A stretch of 43,693 nt of DNA, taken from the NCBI GenBank assembly GCA_903913865.1, contig CAIWMU010000162.1, positions 1-43,693 on the forward strand, written 5' to 3'. Position 1 is the stretch's first letter, and every line of letters begins with the position of its first letter. This stretch comes from an uncultured Verrucomicrobia subdivision 3 bacterium (lineage in GTDB: Bacteria; Verrucomicrobiota; Verrucomicrobiia; Limisphaerales; UBA8199). The position numbers were made by a program, and so were the translations under genes. Shown piece after piece: positions 15,531 through 26,824 of this stretch. A model generated the notes under the pieces. The model was given only the letters and a program-made list of their open reading frames with translations. It did no database searches and was not told the origin of the DNA.

Positions 15531-15584
15531 GCGTGGGGTCAAAGTAAATGGGCAGTGACGAAATCGGGGGGCGGTTTTCCCATA
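15531..15584. repeat. Left copy of direct repeat flanking the defence island
   Basis: A 54-bp sequence beginning GCGTGGGGTCAAAGTAAATG and ending GGCGGTTTTCCCATA is repeated at 26772-26824 in the same orientation, with one substitution (GGGCAGTGACG versus GGGCGGTGACG) and one missing C near the end. Weaker similarity continues a little further (a CCGGGGGG run in both). The two copies bracket the five-gene defence operon. Confidence 0.93.
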
Positions 15585-15844
15585 GGTGAGCTGCTGTCCG
15601 GGGGGACCAAGCCGGATGGCGTGTGTGCCGGTTACGCACGGGAGTCAAAGTCCTGACATCGCTCCGGTCTGGGCCAGCGGCCTAGGAATCTGGTGGTGGA
15701 TTGGGGCGAGCTTGCAGCCCTCGGACCGTAATTCTGGTGTGGCAACCACACTAAAGCTAGAATGAGAAAGGAAAGGATTTCAAGTGAGACTTTGGTGTCG
15801 CCTTCATCGTCCCAGGCTGTTAGCTTTTTCCACCAACGGCGTCG
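15585..15844. promoter_or_regulatory. Leader region of the defence operon
   Basis: 260 nt between the left direct repeat and the SNF2 helicase start, with no plausible gene. It should hold the operon promoter. A small perfect inverted repeat, GTGTGG-CAA-CCACAC at 15737-15751, could be an operator half-site pair or a hairpin. I could not define -35 and -10 boxes with confidence. Confidence 0.4.
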
Positions 15845-18721
15845 ATGAGCACTGCATACCATGCGCGATATTTTGCCCACGACCTGACCAGACGTGCTGC
15901 GACCACAGGGGTCGAGCGCCTGGCGAGGTCGCTGTTCGATGCGTGTGTTGACCTGAACCCCCACCAGATCGAGGCTGCTCTCTTTACGTTCCGATCACCG
16001 CTATCCAAGGGAGTCCTCCTGGCGGATGAAGTCGGCTTGGGCAAGACCATCGAGGCGGGTCTTGTGCTTTGCCAGTATTGGGCTGAGAAGAAGCGCAAGC
16101 TTCTCGTTATCTGTCCGGCCTCCCTGCGCAAACAGTGGAGTCTCGAGCTGAAGGATAAGTTCAACATCCCGACCGTTATCCTTGACGCCAAGTCTTATAA
16201 CGACGCCAGGCGGCGTGGACTGCTCACCCCGTTCGACCAGGAATCAGTCGTCATCACTTCCATGAACTTCGCTGGGAAGATGAAGGATGAAGTGCGGCTC
16301 GTGACCTGGGATTTGGCTGTCGTTGATGAGGCGCACAAGCTGCGGAACTGCTACCGAGCGAGCAACCGCATCGGGCAGGCCATACGGTGGGCGCTGGAAG
16401 ATCGCCGAAAGTTGCTTCTCACGGCCACGCCGCTCCAGAACTCGTTGCTGGAGCTTTACGGACTTTCCACCCTGATTGACGACCACATCTTCGGCGATCT
16501 GGCAGCATTCCGGGACAATTACGTCAACGACGGCGGCAACGTGCACGCTCTGAAGTCACGCATCAATGCGTTCTGCCAGCGCACACTTCGCCGCCAGGTT
16601 CTGGAATACATCAAGTTCACCGAGCGTAGGGCCATCACTAGGCCGTTTAACCCGACCGACGAGGAACAGGGACTTTATGAGGCATTGTCCGGTTTCCTGC
16701 AACGGGCCGACACGTTCTCGATCCCAAAGGAACAGCAACAACTCGTGACTCTGGTGATCCGCAAAGTGCTCGCCTCATCGTCCCGTGCGGTGGTCGGAAC
16801 GCTGGAGACGATCCGAGATCGCCTCATCAGGGTTAAAGAGGGCCTGCCCCTGGAAGTGAGACTGGTGGACGAGTTGTCGGAAACCGACGAGATCACCACC
16901 GAAGACTACGTTGAAGGGGAGGACGAACCCGATGCCGAGAACGGCACCCAGGCGCTGATCGAATCTGGGCCGCCGCAGATCGACCGGCAGAAGTTGGACG
17001 ACGAGATCGCTGAACTGAATCGTTACGTTGACTGGGCACGCTCCATCCATACCGACACCAAAGTTCGTGCGCTGCTTTCTGGTCTGGAGATCGGCTTCAA
17101 GGAATTGAAGCGGATGGGGGCGGCACGAAAGGCCATCATCTTCACCGAGTCGCTGCGCACGCAGCGGTATCTCCTCGATTTTCTGGAGGCCAACGGCTAT
17201 GCCGGGCGCATTGTCCTGTTCAGCGGATCAAACACGGGGGAGCAACCCCGTGCCGTCTTCGAACGCTGGCTGGCGATAAACAAGCCGCTGGGGCGCACCA
17301 GCGAGTCCCGCATCGCCGACCAGCGCCAGTCCTTGATCGAGCATTTTCGTGACAATGCCGACATAATGATCGCCACGGAGTCGGCGGCGGAAGGCATCAA
17401 TCTCCAATTCTGCTCCCTGGTCATCAATTATGACCTACCGTGGAACCCGCAGCGCATCGAGCAACGTATTGGACGCTGCCATCGTTACGGCCAGCGCCAC
17501 GATGTCGTCGTTATCAACTTTCTGAACGAACGCAACGCAGCCGATCAACGGGTGTTCCAGCTTCTCAACGAGAAGTTCAGCCTGTTCAGCGGCGTGTTCG
17601 GCGCATCGGATGAAGTCCTGGGCAGCATTGAGTCGGGTGTGGATTTCGAGAAACGTGTCCTGGGCATTTACCAGTCCTGCCGGACGGTCGAGCAGATCGA
17701 GTTTGCGTTCAACCAGCTTCAGAACGATATGGTCGAGCGCATCAAGGCAGCCATGCTCAAGACCCGGCAGCAACTCCTGGAGCATTTTGACGAGGACGTT
17801 CACCAGCGCCTGCGCTTCCAACTCGACGAGACCCGCACGACTCTCGACCGGGTGAGCAAGGAGTTCTGGACGCTGACTCGCTTCATTCTCGCCAATCACG
17901 CCGCCTTCAACGACCAGGCGCTCCGGTTCACGCTCAAGGTTGCTCCGAGGCTGGACATCCGCTGTGGCGAGTATCACCTGATCTCCAAGGCTGGGGACAA
18001 CGTGGACGGCGACTATCTGTATCGCCTATCACATCCGCTGGGCGAACACGTAATCGCCCAGGGTCAGAGCCTGCCGACCCCCGCTGCCAGGTTGACTTTC
18101 AACATCAGCGATCATCCGGTTCGGATTACCCTGGTTGAGAATCTCAAGGGCAAGCAGGGCACATTGATCCTGACCGTGCTGACAATTGATTCCTATAGCC
18201 GTGAGGAATACCTGCTGTTCAGCGGGCTCCTGGACGGCGAGGGCACACTCGACCAAGAGACGGCAGAGAAGCTGTTCAACTGCGGTGCCACGGTGAACCC
18301 GGTCACGCTGTCCACGCCAGATCAAGACCGCCTCAAACGTGAGTCAGAACGTCACGTCGCCGCCACGATCAGCCGGTCGCTCGATGCCAACAACCGGCAT
18401 TTCCAGGAGGAACGGGACAAACTGGAAAAGTGGGCAGACGACCTGGTTCAAGCTGCGGAGCAGGAACTCCAGGACACGAAGAACCGGATCAAGCTGCTGA
18501 CTCGCCAATCCCGGCAGGCAACGACCACCGAGGAAATGCACCGGCTCGAATCCGAAATCGGCGAACTGGAAAAAGCGAAGCGCCGTCAGCGCCAGCAGAT
18601 TTTCGACAAGGAAGACGAGATCATGGCCAGGCGTGACACGCTGATCGGCAACCTGGAGAAACGCATGGCACAAACCACGAAATCGGAAACCCTATTCGCC
18701 ATCCGCTGGGAAGTCGTGTAA
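15845..18721 (+). CDS. SNF2/RapA-type helicase of defence operon
   Basis: A 958-residue superfamily 2 ATPase. Motif I is DEVGLGKT (residues 61-68), motif Ia ICPASLRKQW, motif II DEAH (161-164), motif III LTATPLQNSLLELYGL, motif V ATESAAEGINLQFC and motif VI QRIGRCHRYGQ (about 540-550), the set found in RapA/HepA-like SNF2 proteins. About 260 residues of insertion (280-420) separate the two RecA lobes. Residues about 830-945 form a long coiled coil. Similar proteins occur as DrmD in class 1 DISARM and in helicase-methylase defence loci; no DrmA, DrmB or DrmC is present here. It is the first gene of the operon, followed after 21 nt by the methyltransferase. It probably translocates on DNA to help recognise or process invading DNA; that role is inference. 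Confidence 0.9.
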   Translation: MSTAYHARYFAHDLTRRAATTGVERLARSLFDACVDLNPHQIEAALFTFRSPLSKGVLLADEVGLGKTIEAGLVLCQYWAEKKRKLLVICPASLRKQWSLELKDKFNIPTVILDAKSYNDARRRGLLTPFDQESVVITSMNFAGKMKDEVRLVTWDLAVVDEAHKLRNCYRASNRIGQAIRWALEDRRKLLLTATPLQNSLLELYGLSTLIDDHIFGDLAAFRDNYVNDGGNVHALKSRINAFCQRTLRRQVLEYIKFTERRAITRPFNPTDEEQGLYEALSGFLQRADTFSIPKEQQQLVTLVIRKVLASSSRAVVGTLETIRDRLIRVKEGLPLEVRLVDELSETDEITTEDYVEGEDEPDAENGTQALIESGPPQIDRQKLDDEIAELNRYVDWARSIHTDTKVRALLSGLEIGFKELKRMGAARKAIIFTESLRTQRYLLDFLEANGYAGRIVLFSGSNTGEQPRAVFERWLAINKPLGRTSESRIADQRQSLIEHFRDNADIMIATESAAEGINLQFCSLVINYDLPWNPQRIEQRIGRCHRYGQRHDVVVINFLNERNAADQRVFQLLNEKFSLFSGVFGASDEVLGSIESGVDFEKRVLGIYQSCRTVEQIEFAFNQLQNDMVERIKAAMLKTRQQLLEHFDEDVHQRLRFQLDETRTTLDRVSKEFWTLTRFILANHAAFNDQALRFTLKVAPRLDIRCGEYHLISKAGDNVDGDYLYRLSHPLGEHVIAQGQSLPTPAARLTFNISDHPVRITLVENLKGKQGTLILTVLTIDSYSREEYLLFSGLLDGEGTLDQETAEKLFNCGATVNPVTLSTPDQDRLKRESERHVAATISRSLDANNRHFQEERDKLEKWADDLVQAAEQELQDTKNRIKLLTRQSRQATTTEEMHRLESEIGELEKAKRRQRQQIFDKEDEIMARRDTLIGNLEKRMAQTTKSETLFAIRWEVV

Positions 18722-18742
18722 TAATTTCCGCCGCTATCCGAA

Positions 18743-21700
18743 ATGCAAACCAACTACGAAAAACTGAAGGCGCTCCTGCGGGACTTGTTCCAGATGGATC
18801 AGGCCGATCTCGATTTCGGTCTCTACCGCATTATGAACGCCAAGCGGGACGAGATCGAAAAGTTCCTGGAACACGATCTCCTGCCGCAGGTGAAGGCCGA
18901 GCTTGCCCGGCACACCAACCTGGGTTCCGGTGCCAAGCAGGCCGAACTGGACGAGGCCATCGAGAACGCCAAGAACCTGGGCGTGAATCCTGACGCCGTG
19001 CCGAAGGTTCAGCAGTTGCGGGAGGAACTGAAGCATGGTGGCGGCGACCTCGACGCCCTGGAGAACGAGGTCTTCTCCCATCTCTACAATTTCTTCCGGC
19101 GCTATTACCACCAGGGCGATTTCCTCAGCCTGCGCCGATACAAGGAAGGCGTTTATGCGATCCCCTACGAGGGTGAGGAGGTCAAACTCTACTGGGCCAA
19201 CCACGACCAGTATTACATCAAGAGCACCGAATACCTCCGCAACTACACGTTCAAGCTCCGGGACAACCGCCGTGTTCATTTCAAGGTCGTCGACGCCGAC
19301 ACGGAGGCGGACAACAACAAGCCGCAGAACGGCAAAGAGCGCCGGTTCATCCTGGTCGAAGCCGATTCCGTGGCGGTGGAGAACGGCGAACTGTTCATCC
19401 GGTTCAACTACCAGACCGACACCCGCAAGCAGACCGAACTGAACGCCGCTGCCGTGACTGCGGTGCTCGGCAACACCACGCTCACCGACTGGCTCTCCGC
19501 CCTGGGCGAGTCACGGCCCACGGAGAAGAACCCGCAGCGCACGCTGCTGGCCAAACACCTGGACGACTTCACCGCCCGCTACGCCTTCGATTATTTCATC
19601 CACAAAGACCTGGGCGGTTTCTTCCGGCGTGAACTGGATTTCTTCATCAAGAACGAGATCATGCACCTGGACGATGTGGAGGACGAGGCAGCGCCCAAGG
19701 TGGAGGTTTACCTCTCCAAGATCAAAGCCCTGCGCAAGATAGCCCACAAGATCATCGCCTTCCTGGAGCAATTGGAGACATTCCAGAAGAAGCTCTGGCT
19801 GAAGAAAAAGTTCGTGGTGGAAACCAACTACTGCGTGACGCTCGACCGTGTGCCGGAGGAACTTTACTCGCAGATCATCGAGAACAAGGCGCAGATCAAG
19901 GAGTGGGAGGAATTGTTGCTCATCCGTGGTGTGTCAATAGCGCCCGCACCGAGAGACACCGAGGTAACAGCGGCCAAGCAAGGAGAAGAACTGGCACTCG
20001 ACCCAAAAAGTGACCAGCGGAATACGCTCACCAAGTCTGAAGAACCGACCGTGGATTTTCTCAAGCGGAATCAATTCTTAGTTGTGGACACTCGGTTCTT
20101 TGATTCTGGATTTACACAGACAATGTTGCGCTCCTTTGAAGACTGTGAACGTTCCATAAGCGGACTGCTGCTTTGCACAGACAATTTTCACGGCCTCGCC
20201 TTAGTGGGAACGGCGTTTGGCGGGCGGGTTCAATGTGCATACATCGACCCGCCATACAACACGGGCGGAGACGACTTCATCTACAAGGATAACTATCAAC
20301 ATTCGAGTTGGCTTTCCGCCATTGAGTCACGACTTGCCCTTGCCATCCGCTTTTTGAAACCAACCGGCATAATCTCAATCTCTTTGGACATTGTTGAATC
20401 TTCAAAGCTGGATTTGCTGACCAAAACGAGGTTTCTCGAATTGACCAAACTTGGCGAGTTCATTTGGAAGACACGGAACACTGACAACCGTGTGAAGACC
20501 AACCTCTCGGTCGATCACGACTACATCCACACCTTTGCGAGAAACGGCTCACCGCTGCTTGGCAGGGTAATTGACCGCTCAAACTTCAAGAATCCAGATA
20601 ACGATCCTCGTGGGCCTTACACTACCGATCCGCTGACCGGCAAAGCCAATGCTGAAGCCCGCCCGAACCTGCACTACACAATCGTCAACCCAAACACCGG
20701 TGACGAATATCCTCCAGACCCGGATTTTGGCTGGATCACTGACAAGCAAGGGTTTGAGCAGTTGTTGACCGACAATCTAATTTACTGGCCCAAGAACCCT
20801 CGGACTGGGAAACCGAGGAAGAAGCGGTTCCTCAACCAGGCGAGTGAACGAGCGCCGATTTCCAGTCTGGGCATCAGCATTACCCAGGGCGAGGGGAACA
20901 TCGGTTTGGCTGACGTGATGGGCAGCAAAGTAATCAACTTCCCGAAACCTGTATCTGTAATAAAGACGGTGATCGACGCCTCTGCTGCTGCCGACGACCT
21001 CGTATTGGACTTCTACGGCGGTTCAGGGACAACTGCTCATGCTACAATTGAGTTGAATCGGGATGATGACGGAACACGTCGCTACGTTGTCATGGAGTGT
21101 GGCTCACACTTCGATTCAGTTTTGCTGCCCCGATTGAAGCGGATCATATACTCAAAGGACTGGAAAGATGGTCAACCAGTTTCTAGAATCGGAGGCTCTC
21201 ATCTGTTCAAATACATTCGCCTCGAATCTTACGAAGACTGCCTCAACAACCTCGAACTGGAACGTACGAAGTCGCAGGACGATCTGCTTACGCAGGCGAA
21301 AGATTTCCGTGAGGACTACACGCTGCGTTACATGCTGGACGTGGAGACACGAGGCAGCGCCTCGCTGCTGAACGTCCAGAAGTTCACCGATCCTTTCAGC
21401 TACAAGCTCAAGGTCAGCACCGGCACGGTCGGCGAGACGAAGGAGGTTAATGTTGACCTGGTGGAGACGTTTAACTGGCTGGTCGGTCTGACGGTCAAAC
21501 ACATTGACCACATCCGCAACGTCCGGGTGATTGAGGGCACGAATCCCCAGGGCGACCGGGTGTTGATCCTCTGGCGCAACGTGGCCGAAGTGCCGAACGA
21601 CAAGTTGGACGAGTGGTTCAACACACAGGGCTACAACCCCCGTGACCAGGAATACGATCTGATCTACGTGAACGGCGACAACAACATCGAAAACCTCCGC

Positions 21701-21778
21701 CGTGGTGACCAGACCTGGAAAGTCAGGCTCATCGAGGAGGACTTCCACCGGCTCATGTGGGAGTGCCAGGATGTTTAG
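18743..21778 (+). CDS. Large beta-class adenine-specific DNA methyltransferase (type III Mod-like)
   Basis: The 1011-residue product contains DPPY (residues 502-505, within CAYIDPPYNTGGDDF) followed by FYGGSGTT (757-764). This motif IV before motif I order defines the beta class of amino-methyltransferases, which includes type III Mod subunits; DPPY suggests N6-adenine. The protein is much longer than ordinary Mod (about 650): residues 1-490 form an alpha-helical, charged extension, and 820-1011 form a C-terminal domain likely contributing to target recognition or partner contacts. Base composition seems to dip in the central catalytic part (about 19930-21230), with more A/T-rich codons than the flanks, suggesting a domain swap. 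It probably marks host DNA so that the operon's helicases and nuclease spare it; target sequence unknown. Confidence 0.92.
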   Translation: MQTNYEKLKALLRDLFQMDQADLDFGLYRIMNAKRDEIEKFLEHDLLPQVKAELARHTNLGSGAKQAELDEAIENAKNLGVNPDAVPKVQQLREELKHGGGDLDALENEVFSHLYNFFRRYYHQGDFLSLRRYKEGVYAIPYEGEEVKLYWANHDQYYIKSTEYLRNYTFKLRDNRRVHFKVVDADTEADNNKPQNGKERRFILVEADSVAVENGELFIRFNYQTDTRKQTELNAAAVTAVLGNTTLTDWLSALGESRPTEKNPQRTLLAKHLDDFTARYAFDYFIHKDLGGFFRRELDFFIKNEIMHLDDVEDEAAPKVEVYLSKIKALRKIAHKIIAFLEQLETFQKKLWLKKKFVVETNYCVTLDRVPEELYSQIIENKAQIKEWEELLLIRGVSIAPAPRDTEVTAAKQGEELALDPKSDQRNTLTKSEEPTVDFLKRNQFLVVDTRFFDSGFTQTMLRSFEDCERSISGLLLCTDNFHGLALVGTAFGGRVQCAYIDPPYNTGGDDFIYKDNYQHSSWLSAIESRLALAIRFLKPTGIISISLDIVESSKLDLLTKTRFLELTKLGEFIWKTRNTDNRVKTNLSVDHDYIHTFARNGSPLLGRVIDRSNFKNPDNDPRGPYTTDPLTGKANAEARPNLHYTIVNPNTGDEYPPDPDFGWITDKQGFEQLLTDNLIYWPKNPRTGKPRKKRFLNQASERAPISSLGISITQGEGNIGLADVMGSKVINFPKPVSVIKTVIDASAAADDLVLDFYGGSGTTAHATIELNRDDDGTRRYVVMECGSHFDSVLLPRLKRIIYSKDWKDGQPVSRIGGSHLFKYIRLESYEDCLNNLELERTKSQDDLLTQAKDFREDYTLRYMLDVETRGSASLLNVQKFTDPFSYKLKVSTGTVGETKEVNVDLVETFNWLVGLTVKHIDHIRNVRVIEGTNPQGDRVLILWRNVAEVPNDKLDEWFNTQGYNPRDQEYDLIYVNGDNNIENLRRGDQTWKVRLIEEDFHRLMWECQDV

Positions 21779-21792
21779 AAAGGAAATGCAAT

Positions 21793-22899
21793 ATGACTTT
21801 TTCTGACAAGCGCCCACTCGAATACATCGAGTTGGAGGGCTACAAGTCGATCAAGAAGCTGCCGAGATTTGGACTAAGCCTTGGTCTGAACGTTCTGATT
21901 GGGGCAAACGGGTCGGGCAAAACAAATTTTGTCCGCTTCTTTGAGTTGCTCGGCCACATGATGGACAAGAGCAAGGGTTTGCAAAATTATCTCAGCACCA
22001 AGGGCAGAGCCGACGCCTTTTTATTCAGGAGTCTGAAGGTGACTGAGCAGTTTCGGGCGCACCTTTGGTTTGGCTTGAATGAGTTCAAATTTACGCTTAA
22101 AGCGGCGGCGGATCGTTCCATGTTCTTTTCTGAGGAGGCAGCGCCTTTTCATGGGCCGTATTTCGGCCCAATTGAGAATAATCAGGGCAGTGGGCACACC
22201 GAAAGCAGTCTGAGCCGCAAAACGCATCCGAGCGCCAGCGAGAAATGGGTGGTAGATGCCATCAGCGACTGGATCGTTTATCACTTTCACGACACCACCC
22301 AGAACGCTCGTGTGATGGGCGTGTGCAACACGGTCGATAGCGAAAAGCTCCTCGGCGACGCTGCCAACATCTCTGCGTTCTTGATGCGCCTGCAAAACGA
22401 AAAGCGGGAGTATTACGATAGGATCGTAAAGACGATACGCCTGGTCGCACCCTTCTTCGGAGATTTTGTTCTGAAAGAAGTCGCCCAAGGTCAAACACAA
22501 CTGCTCTGGAAAGAACGATATGGCGACCAGGTGTTCTACCCGCATCAACTATCAGACGGAACGCTGCGGTTCATCTGCCTAACCACACTACTCCTCCAAC
22601 CGTCACCGCCCTCTACCGTCATCATTGACGAGCCTGAATTGGGCCTTCACCCGTATGCAATTGAAGTCCTGGCAGGATTGCTCCGAGAGGCTTCTACTCG
22701 ATGCCAGGTCATCATTTCAACACAGTCCCGCCCGCTGGTGGACGAGTTCAAGGCGGAAGACCTCATCGTCGTGGATCGAAAGGAAGGTGAGACCACGTTC
22801 AGTCGGTTGACTTCCACAGAACTCGAATCGTGGTTGAATGATTACTCGCTCGGCGAGCTTTGGGGAAAGAATGTCTTTGGAGGGAGGCCGCAGCCATGA
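21793..22899 (+). CDS. AAA (ABC/SMC-type) ATPase of defence operon
   Basis: A 368-residue ATPase of the AAA_21/OLD-like type. Walker A is GANGSGKT (residues 37-44) right after the N-terminal strand, there is an ABC-type signature-like LSDGTLRF (about 250), and Walker B with catalytic Glu is VIIDEPELGLHP (about 275-288), followed by a D-loop/H-switch-like region (QVIISTQSRPLVDEF). The start ATG 21793 is chosen for the AAAGGAAA ribosome-binding sequence just upstream and because the earlier frame start (21757) overlaps the methyltransferase. It overlaps the DUF4276 gene by 4 nt (ATGA), so the two are translationally coupled, as in split OLD-like or RloA/PARIS-type ATPase-effector pairs. It may sense invader proteins or DNA and license the partner. 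Confidence 0.9.
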   Translation: MTFSDKRPLEYIELEGYKSIKKLPRFGLSLGLNVLIGANGSGKTNFVRFFELLGHMMDKSKGLQNYLSTKGRADAFLFRSLKVTEQFRAHLWFGLNEFKFTLKAAADRSMFFSEEAAPFHGPYFGPIENNQGSGHTESSLSRKTHPSASEKWVVDAISDWIVYHFHDTTQNARVMGVCNTVDSEKLLGDAANISAFLMRLQNEKREYYDRIVKTIRLVAPFFGDFVLKEVAQGQTQLLWKERYGDQVFYPHQLSDGTLRFICLTTLLLQPSPPSTVIIDEPELGLHPYAIEVLAGLLREASTRCQVIISTQSRPLVDEFKAEDLIVVDRKEGETTFSRLTSTELESWLNDYSLGELWGKNVFGGRPQP

Positions 22900-23558
22900 A
22901 GCGACTGAACATTGTCGTTGAAGGCCAAGCCGAGGAGACCTTCATCAACGAAGTCTTGGCCCAGCACCTTGCTCAATTCAATGTGGGCGCAGTCGCCAGA
23001 CGGGTCGAGTTTAGCCACAAGAAGAAGGCAATCTTTCGGGGTGGACTGGTCGACTATGCCAAGCTGAGGAGAGATGTCGTAAACTGGCTAAACCAGGATC
23101 GAGCCGCCTTTGTGACGACTATGGTTGATCTCTATGCGCTGCCTGACGACTTCCCCAAGCGTGGCGAGGCACGGAAAATATCAAGTGCGCAGAAGAAGGC
23201 TGATTTTCTTGAGCAGGCTTTTGCCGGGGACATTGGGGCAAAAATGTTCATCCCCAACATCCAGCTTCACGAGTTTGAAACCTTGCTATTCGTAGATATA
23301 CAAGGTCTTCGCTCCTACTATCCAACCCATACTAAAGAGATCGCCAACCTCCAGGCCGAAACCGCACGGTTCAAGAACCCAGAGGAGATAAATGAAGGAA
23401 AGACCACAGCACCATCCAAGCGGATTCTTAACCATGTTCCGAGCTATGAGAAGGTCATCGCTGGGTCTCTGATGGCGATTGATCTCGGCCTGACGAAAAT
23501 CCGTCCTTCGTGTCAGCACTTTGATGGGTGGCTCACGAAGCTCGAACGACTCCCTTAG
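22896..23558 (+). CDS. DUF4276 protein, Toprim-like putative effector
   Basis: A 220-residue protein with the hallmarks of DUF4276: VEGQAEETF at residues 8-16, TMVDLYALPDDFP around 75-87, IQLHEFETLLFVD at 122-134, and the closing PEEIN...TAPSKRI block (162-177). The VEGxxE start and the later acidic residues (Glu9, Glu13, Asp78) resemble the Toprim nuclease arrangement seen in OLD-family and RloB-like proteins, so a metal-dependent nuclease is plausible but unproven. ATG at 22896 overlaps the ATPase stop (22897-22899) and is preceded by a strong GGAGGGAGG. Its stop lies 14 nt before the preferred start of the Res-like gene. Confidence 0.85.
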   Translation: MKRLNIVVEGQAEETFINEVLAQHLAQFNVGAVARRVEFSHKKKAIFRGGLVDYAKLRRDVVNWLNQDRAAFVTTMVDLYALPDDFPKRGEARKISSAQKKADFLEQAFAGDIGAKMFIPNIQLHEFETLLFVDIQGLRSYYPTHTKEIANLQAETARFKNPEEINEGKTTAPSKRILNHVPSYEKVIAGSLMAIDLGLTKIRPSCQHFDGWLTKLERLP

Positions 23559-23572
23559 CAATTCTCCTGAAG

Positions 23573-26500
23573 ATGCCTCCTGCCGTCACAACCCCCCGCC
23601 GTCGCACACGACGCACGCCGAACCTGAAGTTCAGCCAGAGGCTCGTCCTAAACCAGTGGGTGCTCGGCCTGTTCGAGGTCGAAACCCTGGAACAACTGGT
23701 CGGCGAACTGAAGGATGAACACCTTGAAGCCTACGACGAGAACAACGTCTCGTTGTTTTACCATTCGATCACGAACCAACTGTTCGAACGAAGCGAATTG
23801 AGCAATGAGGTTCTACTTGGCTACGACGAAAACATTCTCTGCCACACCCGGCGATTGAACGCCCGTCGGCCACAACCGATCCGGTGGAAGTATTTCCAAT
23901 ACGTCAGCCTGCTGTTCACGGAGATTTACCTCGATCGCTACTTCCGTGACCCGGAGGCGCTTCTGGCAAGCCTGAACGCCCAGGTGACGAAGTTCAACGA
24001 GGACAAGGAGGCCCGCGATCAGGTTGCCCACCACGAGAAGAAGGATTTAACCAAGCTGGCCTTCTGGATGGCGACCGGCAGCGGCAAGACGCTGCTGATG
24101 CACATCAACATTCTCCAGTATCGCCATTACCTGGGGAAGCATGGCCGGGCGAGGGAGTTGAACCGGACGATCTTGTTGACGCCAAACGAGGGCCTGTCGA
24201 AACAACATTTGCAGGAGTTTGAGTTGTCCGGCATCCAGGCGGAACTGTTCCACAAGGACGGCTTGGGCCTGTTCACCGGCCAGAGCGTTGAGATCATCGA
24301 CATGCACAAGCTCGGCGATGAGAGCGGCGACAAGGTCGTGGCCGTGGAGAGCTTCGAGGGCAACAACCTGGTGCTGGTGGACGAGGGGCACCGTGGCGCT
24401 GGCGCTGAAACCTGGAAGGGGCGGCGTGACCAGCTTTCCGAGAATGGCTTCACGTTCGAGTATTCGGCTACGTTTGGCCAGGCCGTCGCCGCCGCCAACA
24501 ACGCTGACCTGACGAACGAATACGCCAAGTGCGTGCTGTTCGATTTCTCCTACAAATACTTTTACCGTGACGGCTACGGGAAGGATTACCGGATTCTCAA
24601 CCTGGCGGAAGATCATGGCGACGAGGCCCGTCTGAAATATCTGACGGCCTGCCTGCTGGCGTTCGTGCAGCAGTTGCGAATTTACGACGACAGGAAGTCC
24701 AAGCTTGCGCCATTCCTGTTAGAACGTCCGCTGTGGGTGTTCGTCGGCGGCAGCGTGACGAAGGAGGTTTCCTCCAAGGACATCTCGGACGTGATGGACA
24801 TCCTGTTGTTCCTGGCTTCGTTCACCAACGATGACAGGAAGGCCGAGTTCACCAACCGGATCGGTCTGCTCATCAGCGGGACGCACGGGCTGATGAACGT
24901 GAAGGCCCAGGTGTTGTTCGACAAAACCTTCACCTACTTCATCGAGCAGCGCCTGACGCCAGAGCAGATTTACCAGGACATTCTCCAGCGGCTGTTCAAC
25001 AGCACCACGACCGGCCTGCTCCACGTCGAGCATCTCAAGGGTAGCGCCGGTGAAGTGGCGTTGCGGGTGGGTGAGAGCGATCCGTTCGGCGTCATCAACG
25101 TCGGCGATCCCTCGAAGCTCTGCAAACAGTGTGAGCGATACACCGGCCAGCTGGTGGTCACGGCGAAGGAGTTCAACGAATCGCTGTTCCACTCGTTGAA
25201 CAATCCTGACTCAAAGCTCCAGGTGTTGATCGGCTCCAAGAAGTTCAGCGAAGGCTGGAGCAGTTGGCGGGTCAGCACGATGGGCTTGATGAACGTCGGC
25301 AAGACGGAGGGTGCCCAGATCATCCAGCTTTTTGGCCGTGGCGTCCGGCTCAAGGGCTACAACTTCGGATTGAAACGCAGCACGCACGTCGAGGGCGTGA
25401 AGAAGCCGGAACATTTACGGGAGGTCGAGACGCTGAACGTGTTCGGCATCCAGGCGGCATACATGGAGGAGTTCAAGAAGTTCCTGGAGGAGGAAGGTCT
25501 GCCGACCGACGCGGAGCGCATCGAATTCATTCTGCCGACATTCTCCAATCTGGGGACGGTGACGCTGAAGGTCGTTCAATTACCGGAGGGGCTGGACTTC
25601 AAAAAGGATGCGCCCAAGCCGACGCTGGAGCCACCAACCCCGAAGATTCCTGGACGGCGGGTGTTGCTGGACTGGTATCCGAAGATTCAGTCACGCATCT
25701 CGCAGGGCGTGACGGGCGCGGGCGAAGCTGTGGCCCGCAACGAGGCCAGCCTGAAGAAGGAGCACCTGGCGTTCTTCGACTGGGATTCGATCTACTGGGA
25801 GTTGCAGGATTTCAAGAACGACCGGGCCTGGTTCAATCTAAACCTGGAACGGGACAATCTGGAGAAGCTGCTCTCCGACGACTCCTGGTACACGTTAATG
25901 ATCCCGGCGGACGAACTTGTCCCGACCCGCTTTGACCGTGTGCGCTTCTGGCAGGAGATTGCCGTGGCGTTGCTGAAGAAATATGCCAATGCCTTCTACC
26001 TGGCGAAGAAGTCGGAGTGGGAAGCCCCGAAGCTCGAATACCGAGACCTCGATCCCAACGACCCGAACATGGTGAAGGAATATCGCTTCCTGATCGAGAA
26101 GTCGGAGACTGAAATTCAGCTTCGGATGAACGAGATCAAGGAGGCCGTCGAGAAGAAGGTGCTCAAGGATTTCGATTTTGGAAAACTCCAGACGTTCTGC
26201 TTCGGCCAGCACCTGTATCAGCCGTTGGTTTACCTGAGCAGCGATGTGATCCAGGTCACGCCGGTCGAGTTGAACGAGGGGGAGCGGAACTTCGTGCTCG
26301 ACCTCCGCAAGTTCCACGACCGGGAGAAGACTGGTTTCTTCGCCGACAAGGAGCTTTATCTGCTGCGCAACCGGAGCAAGGGCCGTGGCATCGGATTCTT
26401 CGAGGCGGGCAACTTCTATCCCGACTTCATCCTGTGGCTCGTCATGGGCGGCAAGCAGTTCGTCTCGTTCGTTGACCCGAAGGGTCTGCGGAACCTGGAA

Positions 26501-26770
26501 GGCGGCATCGCCAACCCGAAGATCGAGTTTTACAACACGATCAAGAAGATCGAGAAACCGCACCTTGATCCGAACATCATCCTCAATTCGTTCATCGTCA
26601 CGCCGACCCGCTACAGCGATCCAGGGTGGTGGACGGGCCGATTGACCAAGGCCCAGTTCGAGGCCCGCCACGTCTTCTTCCAGAAGGAGGACACCGACAC
26701 GTACATCGGGAAGATTCTGGCGAAGGTTGTGGCGTCCACGGTGCCAGCGGGCGCTGGCGCTGTCGCTTGA
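23573..26770 (+). CDS. Type III Res-like DEAD/DEAH helicase-endonuclease
   Basis: A 1065-residue protein from ATG 23573; the alternative GTG at 23528 overlaps the preceding gene and adds a poorly conserved-looking leader. Superfamily 2 motifs are ATGSGKT (GSGKT at 169-173), DEGH (270-273, in LVDEGHRGAG), YSATFGQ (motif III), KFSEGWSSWR and QLFGRGVRL (motifs V and VI). Near the C-terminus FYPDFILWL (Asp951) and VDPKG (Asp968, Lys970) form a PD-(D/E)XK nuclease signature, with Asp in place of the more usual Glu. Architecture matches type III restriction Res subunits. It is last in the operon and ends 1 nt before the right direct repeat. It probably cleaves unmodified DNA with the methyltransferase in this operon as its partner. 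Confidence 0.92.
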   Translation: MPPAVTTPRRRTRRTPNLKFSQRLVLNQWVLGLFEVETLEQLVGELKDEHLEAYDENNVSLFYHSITNQLFERSELSNEVLLGYDENILCHTRRLNARRPQPIRWKYFQYVSLLFTEIYLDRYFRDPEALLASLNAQVTKFNEDKEARDQVAHHEKKDLTKLAFWMATGSGKTLLMHINILQYRHYLGKHGRARELNRTILLTPNEGLSKQHLQEFELSGIQAELFHKDGLGLFTGQSVEIIDMHKLGDESGDKVVAVESFEGNNLVLVDEGHRGAGAETWKGRRDQLSENGFTFEYSATFGQAVAAANNADLTNEYAKCVLFDFSYKYFYRDGYGKDYRILNLAEDHGDEARLKYLTACLLAFVQQLRIYDDRKSKLAPFLLERPLWVFVGGSVTKEVSSKDISDVMDILLFLASFTNDDRKAEFTNRIGLLISGTHGLMNVKAQVLFDKTFTYFIEQRLTPEQIYQDILQRLFNSTTTGLLHVEHLKGSAGEVALRVGESDPFGVINVGDPSKLCKQCERYTGQLVVTAKEFNESLFHSLNNPDSKLQVLIGSKKFSEGWSSWRVSTMGLMNVGKTEGAQIIQLFGRGVRLKGYNFGLKRSTHVEGVKKPEHLREVETLNVFGIQAAYMEEFKKFLEEEGLPTDAERIEFILPTFSNLGTVTLKVVQLPEGLDFKKDAPKPTLEPPTPKIPGRRVLLDWYPKIQSRISQGVTGAGEAVARNEASLKKEHLAFFDWDSIYWELQDFKNDRAWFNLNLERDNLEKLLSDDSWYTLMIPADELVPTRFDRVRFWQEIAVALLKKYANAFYLAKKSEWEAPKLEYRDLDPNDPNMVKEYRFLIEKSETEIQLRMNEIKEAVEKKVLKDFDFGKLQTFCFGQHLYQPLVYLSSDVIQVTPVELNEGERNFVLDLRKFHDREKTGFFADKELYLLRNRSKGRGIGFFEAGNFYPDFILWLVMGGKQFVSFVDPKGLRNLEGGIANPKIEFYNTIKKIEKPHLDPNIILNSFIVTPTRYSDPGWWTGRLTKAQFEARHVFFQKEDTDTYIGKILAKVVASTVPAGAGAVA

Positions 26771-26771
26771 G

Positions 26772-26824
26772 GCGTGGGGTCAAAGTAAATGGGCGGTGAC
26801 GAAATCGGGGGGCGGTTTTCCATA
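26772..26824. repeat. Right copy of direct repeat flanking the defence island
   Basis: 53-bp copy of the repeat at 15531-15584, same orientation, with one base change and one 1-nt deletion. It begins 1 nt after the stop codon of the Res-like gene, so the boundary follows the last gene of the operon almost exactly. Confidence 0.93.

What the first reader, a model, noticed from the sequence alone, without database searches (positions are those of the whole stretch)
15531..26824. Five-gene defence island: SNF2 helicase, Mod, AAA ATPase, DUF4276, Res
Seen: one operon with spacings of 21, 14, -4 and 14 nt encoding two different SF2 helicases, a 1011-residue beta-class methyltransferase, an ABC-type ATPase and a DUF4276 protein. 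Known: type III RM needs only Mod and Res; class 1 DISARM uses a SNF2 helicase (DrmD) and a methylase but also DrmA, B and C, absent here; helicase-methylase-ATPase (Hma-like) loci have been described as defence candidates. Inference: this is a composite system in which an ATPase/Toprim pair is wired into a helicase-extended type III-like RM, possibly as a second line (abortive or DNA-degrading) when restriction is countered.
Basis: partly seen in the sequence, partly recalled or inferred. Interest (0 to 1): 0.8.

Follow-up and report, generated by a model that had tools for sequence, protein, structure and literature searches.

The report
Type III restriction operon carrying defence cargo
A bacterial restriction operon (a helicase, a DNA-marking enzyme and a DNA-cutting enzyme) carries, between its marking and cutting genes, a two-gene module that looks like a self-contained backup alarm-and-nuclease unit; the same module turns up alone and inside other restriction systems, so it is better read as swappable cargo than as a fixed part of one five-gene machine.

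Summary
Five intact co-directional genes (SNF2 helicase, long type III Mod, ABC ATPase, DUF4276, Res) have the stated spacings, and the stated borders coincide with a 50-nt direct repeat found only twice in this 6.27-Mb genome. The order is not unique: of 80 related loci with a visible Mod-Res junction, 12 (11 distinct) carry the ATPase-DUF4276 pair there, six distinct ones (window included) in exactly this order, the other five from four phyla. It is not one named system: PADLOC sees DrmD-like + MTase_III + REase_III around HEC-01, a module already named as a Hma-embedded candidate. The pair is modular: 42 junctions are empty, 24 hold other ORFs, the embedded pairs are not one clade (AU p 6e-8), and the pair also sits in BREX, in a conventional type III operon, and on small plasmids without annotated RM genes. 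DUF4276 folds most like OLD Toprim nucleases, with moderate support. Best reading: an ATP-dependent restriction triad with an exchangeable cargo slot holding a PARIS-like backup. Trigger and functional coupling are untested.

The parts
15531..15580 (.). left copy of the 50-nt direct repeat bounding the unit; its left part overlaps a conserved element upstream of the T2SSE/PilB-like gene
15581..15844 (+). 264-nt leader; no + strand ORF of 80 aa or more and no sigma-70-like promoter match in it
15845..18721 (+). SNF2/RapA-like SF2 helicase-translocase, 958 aa (best PADLOC model DrmD, 1.8e-192)
18743..21778 (+). beta-class DNA adenine methyltransferase (type III Mod) with ~450-aa conserved N-terminal extension, 1011 aa
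21793..22899 (+). OLD-like ABC ATPase, 368 aa (HEC-01A, 7.6e-136)
22896..23558 (+). DUF4276 protein, 220 aa (HEC-01B, 3.5e-78); predicted Toprim-like nuclease
23573..26770 (+). type III Res: SF2 helicase with C-terminal PD-(D/E)xK-like motif, 1065 aa
26772..26821 (.). right copy of the 50-nt direct repeat, starting 2 nt after the Res stop codon

Best explanation
The unit is an ATP-dependent restriction-modification operon, a type III-like triad (SNF2 translocase, long Mod, Res), with an independent two-gene module of the HEC-01 kind carried as cargo in the gap between Mod and Res. Mod marks self DNA at a specific site. Res, with Mod, cuts unmarked DNA. The SNF2 protein most likely translocates on DNA to help discrimination or clear bound protein. 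In the cargo, the ABC ATPase most likely holds the Toprim-like DUF4276 nuclease inactive until a phage signal, possibly an anti-restriction protein as in PARIS, releases it to cut nucleic acid and stop the infected cell. The whole unit arrived as one ~11.2-kb cassette that left a 50-nt direct repeat. Shown: gene content, conserved motifs, recurrence, modularity of the pair, Toprim-like fold as best match, unique flanking repeat. Inferred: restriction activity, sequestration and release, trigger, target, mobility.
For: Gene content, motifs and co-directional packing. Motor and methylase motif residues are conserved in at least 95% of rows (SNF2 61 rows, Mod 85, Res 74; for Mod D502-P503-P504, Y505 falls below); in the Res nuclease motif PD is in 71 of 74, the acidic residue is D in 65 and E in 6, the K is K in 63 and H in 8. 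Same order in six distinct loci including the window, and the pair at the same junction in 11 distinct loci. Cargo-slot behaviour: 42 empty, 24 other ORFs, 12 HEC-01, 2 long gaps without ORF, of 80. Of 20 other cargo ORFs scanned, 15 hit a PADLOC family at 1e-5. At least 7 label changes on the Mod tree; close Mods with and without the pair (L033 HEC, L035 empty, support 99). Pair partnered in 30 of 32 sampled places, the other two cut by contig ends. Best fold matches of DUF4276 are four OLD Toprim entries, Z 7.9-8.4, then 6.9. GC3 of the pair 0.63/0.60 against 0.72-0.81 for the core.
Against: No functional data. The DUF4276 fold match is moderate: Foldseek best E 2.2e-3, Z near the level the tool warns about, and no sequence match in PDB. 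Some vertical association of pair and host exists: 7 changes against a shuffled mean of 11.3, 0 of 500 as low. Of 32 strong DUF4276 places fetched in the phylum only 7 lie near the restriction, BREX or SNF2 genes I searched for; type I RM was not searched for. PADLOC's PDC and HEC families were themselves named by embedding (passage), so their hits in this slot are partly circular. No integrase among the five genes. Only this locus of 43 shows long flanking repeats, apart from L048, whose repeat lies at contig ends.
Confidence: 0.62

Rival explanations
1. A single integrated five-component system: the ATPase-DUF4276 pair is triggered by, or physically bound to, the SNF2-Mod-Res complex, so all five genes are needed for full defence.
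For: Tight packing (14, -4, 14 nt) and the same five-gene order in six distinct loci including the window; the pair is clustered on the Mod tree more than shuffles give; in L033 Mod, ATPase, DUF4276 and Res overlap by 1-4 nt at each junction.
Against: 42 of 80 junctions are empty and 24 hold other ORFs; the pair stands on Acinetobacter pTR11_2 and a Piscirickettsia plasmid with no RM genes annotated in the stretch shown; in BREX between PglX and PglZ, and ahead of Res in a conventional type III operon; embedded pairs not one clade, AU p 6e-8.
Confidence: 0.15
2. Merely a chance-assembled defence island: neighbours with no functional relation and no special slot.
For: Cargo of the two gaps is very diverse, 53 clusters; 25 of 32 DUF4276 places sampled in the phylum lie away from the restriction genes searched for.
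Against: Insertions fall inside a conserved co-directional operon with short or overlapping junctions, the same pair in 11 distinct loci, and often with known defence families; a random island would not be expected to keep Mod, cargo and Res in this order across phyla.
Confidence: 0.13
3. The pair is a toxin-antitoxin-like plasmid or island stabiliser that addicts the host to the cassette, not a phage-triggered effector.
For: The pair lies on small plasmids without annotated RM genes nearby; the unit is bounded by direct repeats, so loss by recombination is a risk.
Against: The ATPase is closest to HEC-01A models, with AriA next after them, and the partner fold is closest to OLD nucleases; related ATPase-Toprim systems are reported as antiphage; the pair recurs inside restriction and BREX operons.
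Confidence: 0.1

Closest known systems
HEC-01 (Hma-embedded candidate 1, PADLOC)
   Same: Both proteins hit HEC-01A/HEC-01B models far above all other families, adjacent and overlapping.
   Different: Named for embedding in Hma; here the host is a SNF2-type III triad.
Type III restriction-modification (EcoP15I-like)
   Same: Beta-class Mod related to the EcoP15I and 6k0w Mods; Res with SF2 motor and C-terminal nuclease motif.
   Different: Mod has a conserved ~450-aa N-terminal extension; a SNF2 helicase precedes it; Res has no single-sequence match in PDB.
PARIS (AriA/AriB)
   Same: ABC ATPase plus Toprim partner; an AriA model hits the ATPase at 3.7e-31.
   Different: Partner is DUF4276, with no AriB hit; HEC-01 models score far higher.
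OLD-ABC/Toprim backup modules of BREX and BR (Hma) systems (PMC12839542)
   Same: Published theme of a PARIS-like module with a methylation-based system (section 28 and section 35 part 1 read).
   Different: Those hosts are BREX and DUF499-centred; the parts read do not describe the SNF2-Mod-Res host or DUF4276.
DISARM class 1
   Same: SNF2 protein is nearest to DrmD.
   Different: DrmB and DrmC not found beside it and no separate DrmA gene; Mod is type III.
RRDM island, DarTG2 inside a type I RMS (PMC12255303)
   Same: A toxic defence module embedded between the specificity and endonuclease genes of an RM operon (passages read).
   Different: Type I RM, DarTG cargo.

Membership tests
Type III restriction-modification | beta-class N6-adenine Mod with DPPY motif before FxGxG | tested here: met
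   DPPY at 502, DFYGGSG at 756; profile hits Mod structures 6k0w and 4zcf
Type III restriction-modification | Res with SF2 helicase motor and PD-(D/E)xK nuclease | tested here: met
   GSGKT, DEGH, PD-x16-DPKG, conserved in relatives; motif level only, no fold test
Type III restriction-modification | cleavage needs two inversely oriented sites and ATP-driven diffusion | not testable with these tools
   biochemical property (recalled)
HEC-01 | adjacent HEC-01A ATPase and HEC-01B DUF4276 genes | tested here: met
   7.6e-136 and 3.5e-78, 4-nt overlap
HEC-01 | embedded in a Hma operon (origin of the name) | tested here: not met
   host is SNF2-Mod-Res; no DUF499 domain among the five proteins
PARIS | AriB-type Toprim partner | tested here: not met
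   g4 matches only HEC-01B models, 7 families at 0.01
PARIS | triggered by an anti-restriction protein such as Ocr | not testable with these tools
   needs experiment
Hma / BR | DUF499 (HmaC) ATPase plus its methylase and helicase | tested here: not met
   g3 is AAA_21/HEC-01A; g1 fits DrmD (1.8e-192) better than HmaA (9.2e-53)
DISARM class 1 | DrmA, DrmB and DrmC with DrmD and DrmMI | tested here: not met
   DrmD-like g1 present; one model labelled DrmA also hits g1 (3.6e-42, far below DrmD); no DrmB, DrmC or DrmMI in the hits shown for the five genes (best 25 per protein) or for the 10 flanking ORFs scanned with PADLOC; not every window ORF was scanned
Gabija | GajA fusion plus UvrD-like GajB | tested here: not met
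   ATPase and Toprim-like protein are separate genes; no GajB in the hits shown for the five
OLD/Toprim nuclease fold (DUF4276) | Toprim fold with conserved E and D metal ligands | tested here: inconclusive
   best fold matches OLD C-terminal Toprim, Z 8.4 over 171 residues; E9, E13, D78, E126, E128, K186 in 40-41 of 41 rows; second D of D-x-D is Y

The most novel reading that the evidence does not exclude
SNF2-Mod-Res is an unnamed, widespread class of ATP-dependent restriction in which the conserved 450-aa Mod extension docks a second, RapA-like motor, and the Mod-Res gap is a maintained co-translated slot for interchangeable backup effectors that fire when the triad is inhibited; HEC-01 is the commonest insert found in the loci examined here.
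Probability: 0.2. Interest if true: 0.7.

Novelty: new variant of a known kind. Interest (0 to 1): 0.42.

Why it matters
It turns a guess about one five-gene machine into a testable rule: one restriction operon family with a defined cargo slot (of 80 junctions 42 empty, 24 other, 12 HEC-01, 2 unclear) gives natural with-and-without pairs for asking whether embedded ABC-ATPase/nuclease modules guard restriction systems, and points to further candidate effectors found in the same slot.

Tried and rejected
Rejected: 'order unique to this genome'; 'one named five-component system'; DISARM, Hma, PARIS and Gabija membership (see tests); 'general flanking-repeat mobility' (longest exact match between 2 kb up and 2 kb down of the triad is 26 nt in the window, 28 nt in L048 at its contig ends, 15 nt or less in the other 41 of 43).

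Led nowhere: sequence match of DUF4276 to PDB (none) and of Res to PDB (none); fold of the Mod N-terminal 470 residues (model pLDDT 79, pTM 0.55; best Foldseek E 1.6), inconclusive and no evidence of a new fold; promoter and terminator scan at shuffle level; Rfam found only the tRNA; phage records with DUF4276: none of 50,697. Viral contigs: 21 Mod-related loci, some truncated, none with the pair beside Mod, while two contigs carry the pair without Mod in the stretch held. The 2024 preprint that defined HEC systems is not held and was not read; Krishnan et al. 2020 was not held. None of the 16 papers listed holds 'DUF4276'. Searches for a SNF2-type III triad as a system: 13 papers; 3; 10 of 20 listed; I saw titles and abstract starts and none described one; the library is open-licence only.

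My first script left 12 of 88 loci without a junction; a recheck showed that four of them (L034, L068, L079, L094) do have Res, called with an over-long start, and an empty junction, so the count rose from 76 to 80; eight show no Res in the DNA held. The tree was labelled before that correction: 72 labelled rows (L043 included), leaving out L055 and L114 (Mod hit under 900 bits), L051 and L091 (long gap without ORF) and the 12. L042/L043 are identical over 23 kb, L169 is the same locus as L116, viral L205/L212 agree over 17.5 kb. L105's Res ORF is short (663 aa) close to a contig end. Only 20 cargo ORFs were scanned against PADLOC and Pfam, five without a PADLOC family, out of 53 clusters. The 32 DUF4276 places of at least 114 bits outside the window were fetched, weaker ones not. 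Five of the 12 plasmid records with DUF4276 were opened for it; L033's record, opened for its Mod, is a sixth.
Full report
What is there. The five genes are intact, co-directional and spaced as reported. Pfam and PADLOC give SNF2/DrmD-like helicase, type III Mod, HEC-01A ATPase, HEC-01B DUF4276 and type III Res. By sequence the helicase is closest to RapA among solved structures, the Mod to the 6k0w Mod and EcoP15I, and the ATPase to an OLD nuclease, then SMC proteins, with PtuA and AriA lower. Ten other ORFs of the window gave no PADLOC family except a subtilase model, so this is the only defence locus I recognised in the window; not every ORF was scanned.

Borders. A 50-nt direct repeat (49/50) bounds the unit at 15531-15580 and 26772-26821, the right copy starting 2 nt after the Res stop. 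A search of the 6.27-Mb genome with up to 3 mismatches finds only these two copies. In 8 of 19 relatives searched besides the own genome, a conserved element overlaps the left copy's left end; in 7 of the 8 the match runs on over about 225-254 bases towards the T2SSE/PilB-like gene. I therefore read the left copy as native and the right copy as made on insertion (inference). No integrase is among the five genes. Of 43 related loci with flanks, only the window shows such a repeat, apart from one at contig ends. Island GC is 0.561 against 0.612 and 0.595 in 10-kb flanks; GC3 of the cargo pair is 0.63 and 0.60 against 0.72-0.81 in the core genes.

Recurrence. With seven plasmid loci and the window, n is 88. 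The SNF2 family gene lies upstream of Mod in 61 of 88; nine of the other 27 hold under 3 kb upstream. Of 80 loci with the Mod-Res junction visible, 42 are empty, 24 hold other ORFs, 2 have a long gap without ORF, and 12 hold the ATPase-DUF4276 pair: the window, Aeromonas plasmid pE31A, Thiohalocapsa, Aromatoleum, three Planctomycetota (one of them twice, identical), Rudanella, a Sphingobacteriales MAG, a Lentisphaeria MAG and an unclassified MAG. The exact five-gene order without extra genes is seen in six distinct loci: window, L033, L042 (=L043), L057, L105 (Res ORF short, near a contig end), L116. L040, L041 and L063 add genes; L046 and L050 lack this SNF2 upstream.

Modularity. On the Mod tree the HEC-01 label needs at least 7 changes, with starred branches forcing 7; the shuffled mean is 11.3 and 0 of 500 are as low, so there is some retained association too (72 labelled rows, before the correction, which adds only empty rows and so cannot lower the count). 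L033 (with the pair) and L035, a Klebsiella plasmid locus with an empty junction, are sisters (99). The window's own sister Mod in that tree, L059, is empty (87). In a joint ATPase+DUF4276 tree of 41 rows, the 12 Mod-Res rows are not one clade (AU p 6.4e-8; quick tree, long rows present). In 387 genomes of the phylum, own included, 57 have DUF4276. Of 32 strong places fetched, the ATPase precedes it in 30 and the other two end at contig edges. Contexts include BREX between PglX and PglZ (L148), a conventional type III operon ahead of Res (L154), SNF2-[pair]-Mod-Res (L155) and HKD/SNF2 neighbours (L158, L165, L175). By the seeds I used, 7 of 32 places sit near such genes and 25 do not. On plasmids, 12 of 72,556 records match; of five opened for this, the pair stands without annotated RM genes in the stretch on Acinetobacter pTR11_2 and a Piscirickettsia plasmid, beside HNH genes on a Nostoc plasmid, between a methyltransferase and an Mrr gene in Ideonella, and between SNF2 and a short methyltransferase CDS on Aeromonas pMC64A, where transposases follow (PLSDB gene tables are incomplete).

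Other cargo. The same junction, or the gene after Mod at two contig ends (L044, L049), was sampled with 20 ORFs; 15 hit a PADLOC family at 1e-5 and 5 do not. Families include PDC-S02 nuclease, SoFic, NsnA and NsnC, PDC-M38AB, an ABC protein with a weak PHP hit beside a protein that clusters with a Schlafen-type one, two GmrSD-type proteins, PDC-S32, RhuM (PDC-S05), BRO-N (PDC-S13), and by Pfam a zeta-like kinase and a polyvalent-protein kinase. This is the published 'guilt-by-embedding' pattern; I saw the defining preprint only through citing passages, and because the PDC and HEC families were named that way these hits are partly circular.

DUF4276. AlphaFold2 model: mean pLDDT 88.9, pTM 0.85, from 10 sequences. 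Foldseek's best hit is the OLD C-terminal Toprim region (E 2.2e-3; none under 0.001). VIA-align's first four entries are OLD (Z 8.4, 8.2, 8.1, 7.9), then 6.9 for a hypothetical protein, with GajA at 6.5. Conserved E9, E13, D78, E126, E128 and K186 resemble the OLD ligands E400, E404, D455 and E508 and the lysine K562 described in PMC7049728 (passages); I did not align residue by residue. The support is moderate.

Mechanism. Shown: anatomy, conservation, modularity. From known families: Mod/Res restrict unmodified DNA and RapA-like SNF2 proteins translocate (recalled); in PARIS, AriA sequesters Toprim AriB and releases it on sensing Ocr or other phage proteins, after which it cuts tRNA (PMC12409363, passages). 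Inference: HEC-01 acts likewise as a backup. Its trigger, target and dependence on the host triad are unknown.

Host. One phylum-mate (G208) is identical to a Lentisphaeria MAG locus (L169 and L116, 100% over 16.5 kb), so the genome probably belongs to the GTDB phylum that includes Lentisphaeria (from recall: Verrucomicrobiota).

Recounting changed the junction totals (76 to 80, empty 38 to 42), the Res motif spacing (x16), and the phylum denominator (32). None of these changes my odds.

Noticed in passing
window 15531-15580 and 26772-26821: 50-nt direct repeat (49/50) bounding the unit exactly, only two copies in the genome; the left end overlaps a conserved element upstream of a T2SSE/PilB-like gene.
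   Followed up: yes
L148 (G083:C1:5015000-5034000): The same ATPase-DUF4276 pair lies inside a BREX operon between PglX and PglZ.
   Followed up: partly
window 18743-20152 (Mod residues 1-470): Long Mod N-terminal extension with many invariant residues; the highly conserved stretch 138-162 is modelled with very low confidence and the model has no fold match, possibly a partner-binding surface.
   Followed up: partly
L038 7013-9958; L066 6891-9869; L087 6777-10004: In loci without the SNF2 gene, another large protein sits upstream of Mod; the one in L038 is GajB/UvrD-like, the others hit no helicase model.
   Followed up: partly
L048 (Thermomonas contig, 11,904 bp): Contig ends share 28 nt around a SNF2-Mod-Res unit, perhaps a small circle, a repeat-bounded cassette or an assembly overlap.
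   Followed up: no
L092 13014-16339: Two adjacent GmrSD_N proteins between Mod and Res, one with an extra DUF7834 domain.
   Followed up: no
G000 contigs C221, C142, C83, C30, C139: Other SNF2-type helicases of the window's genome, hit weakly by the island helicase.
   Followed up: no
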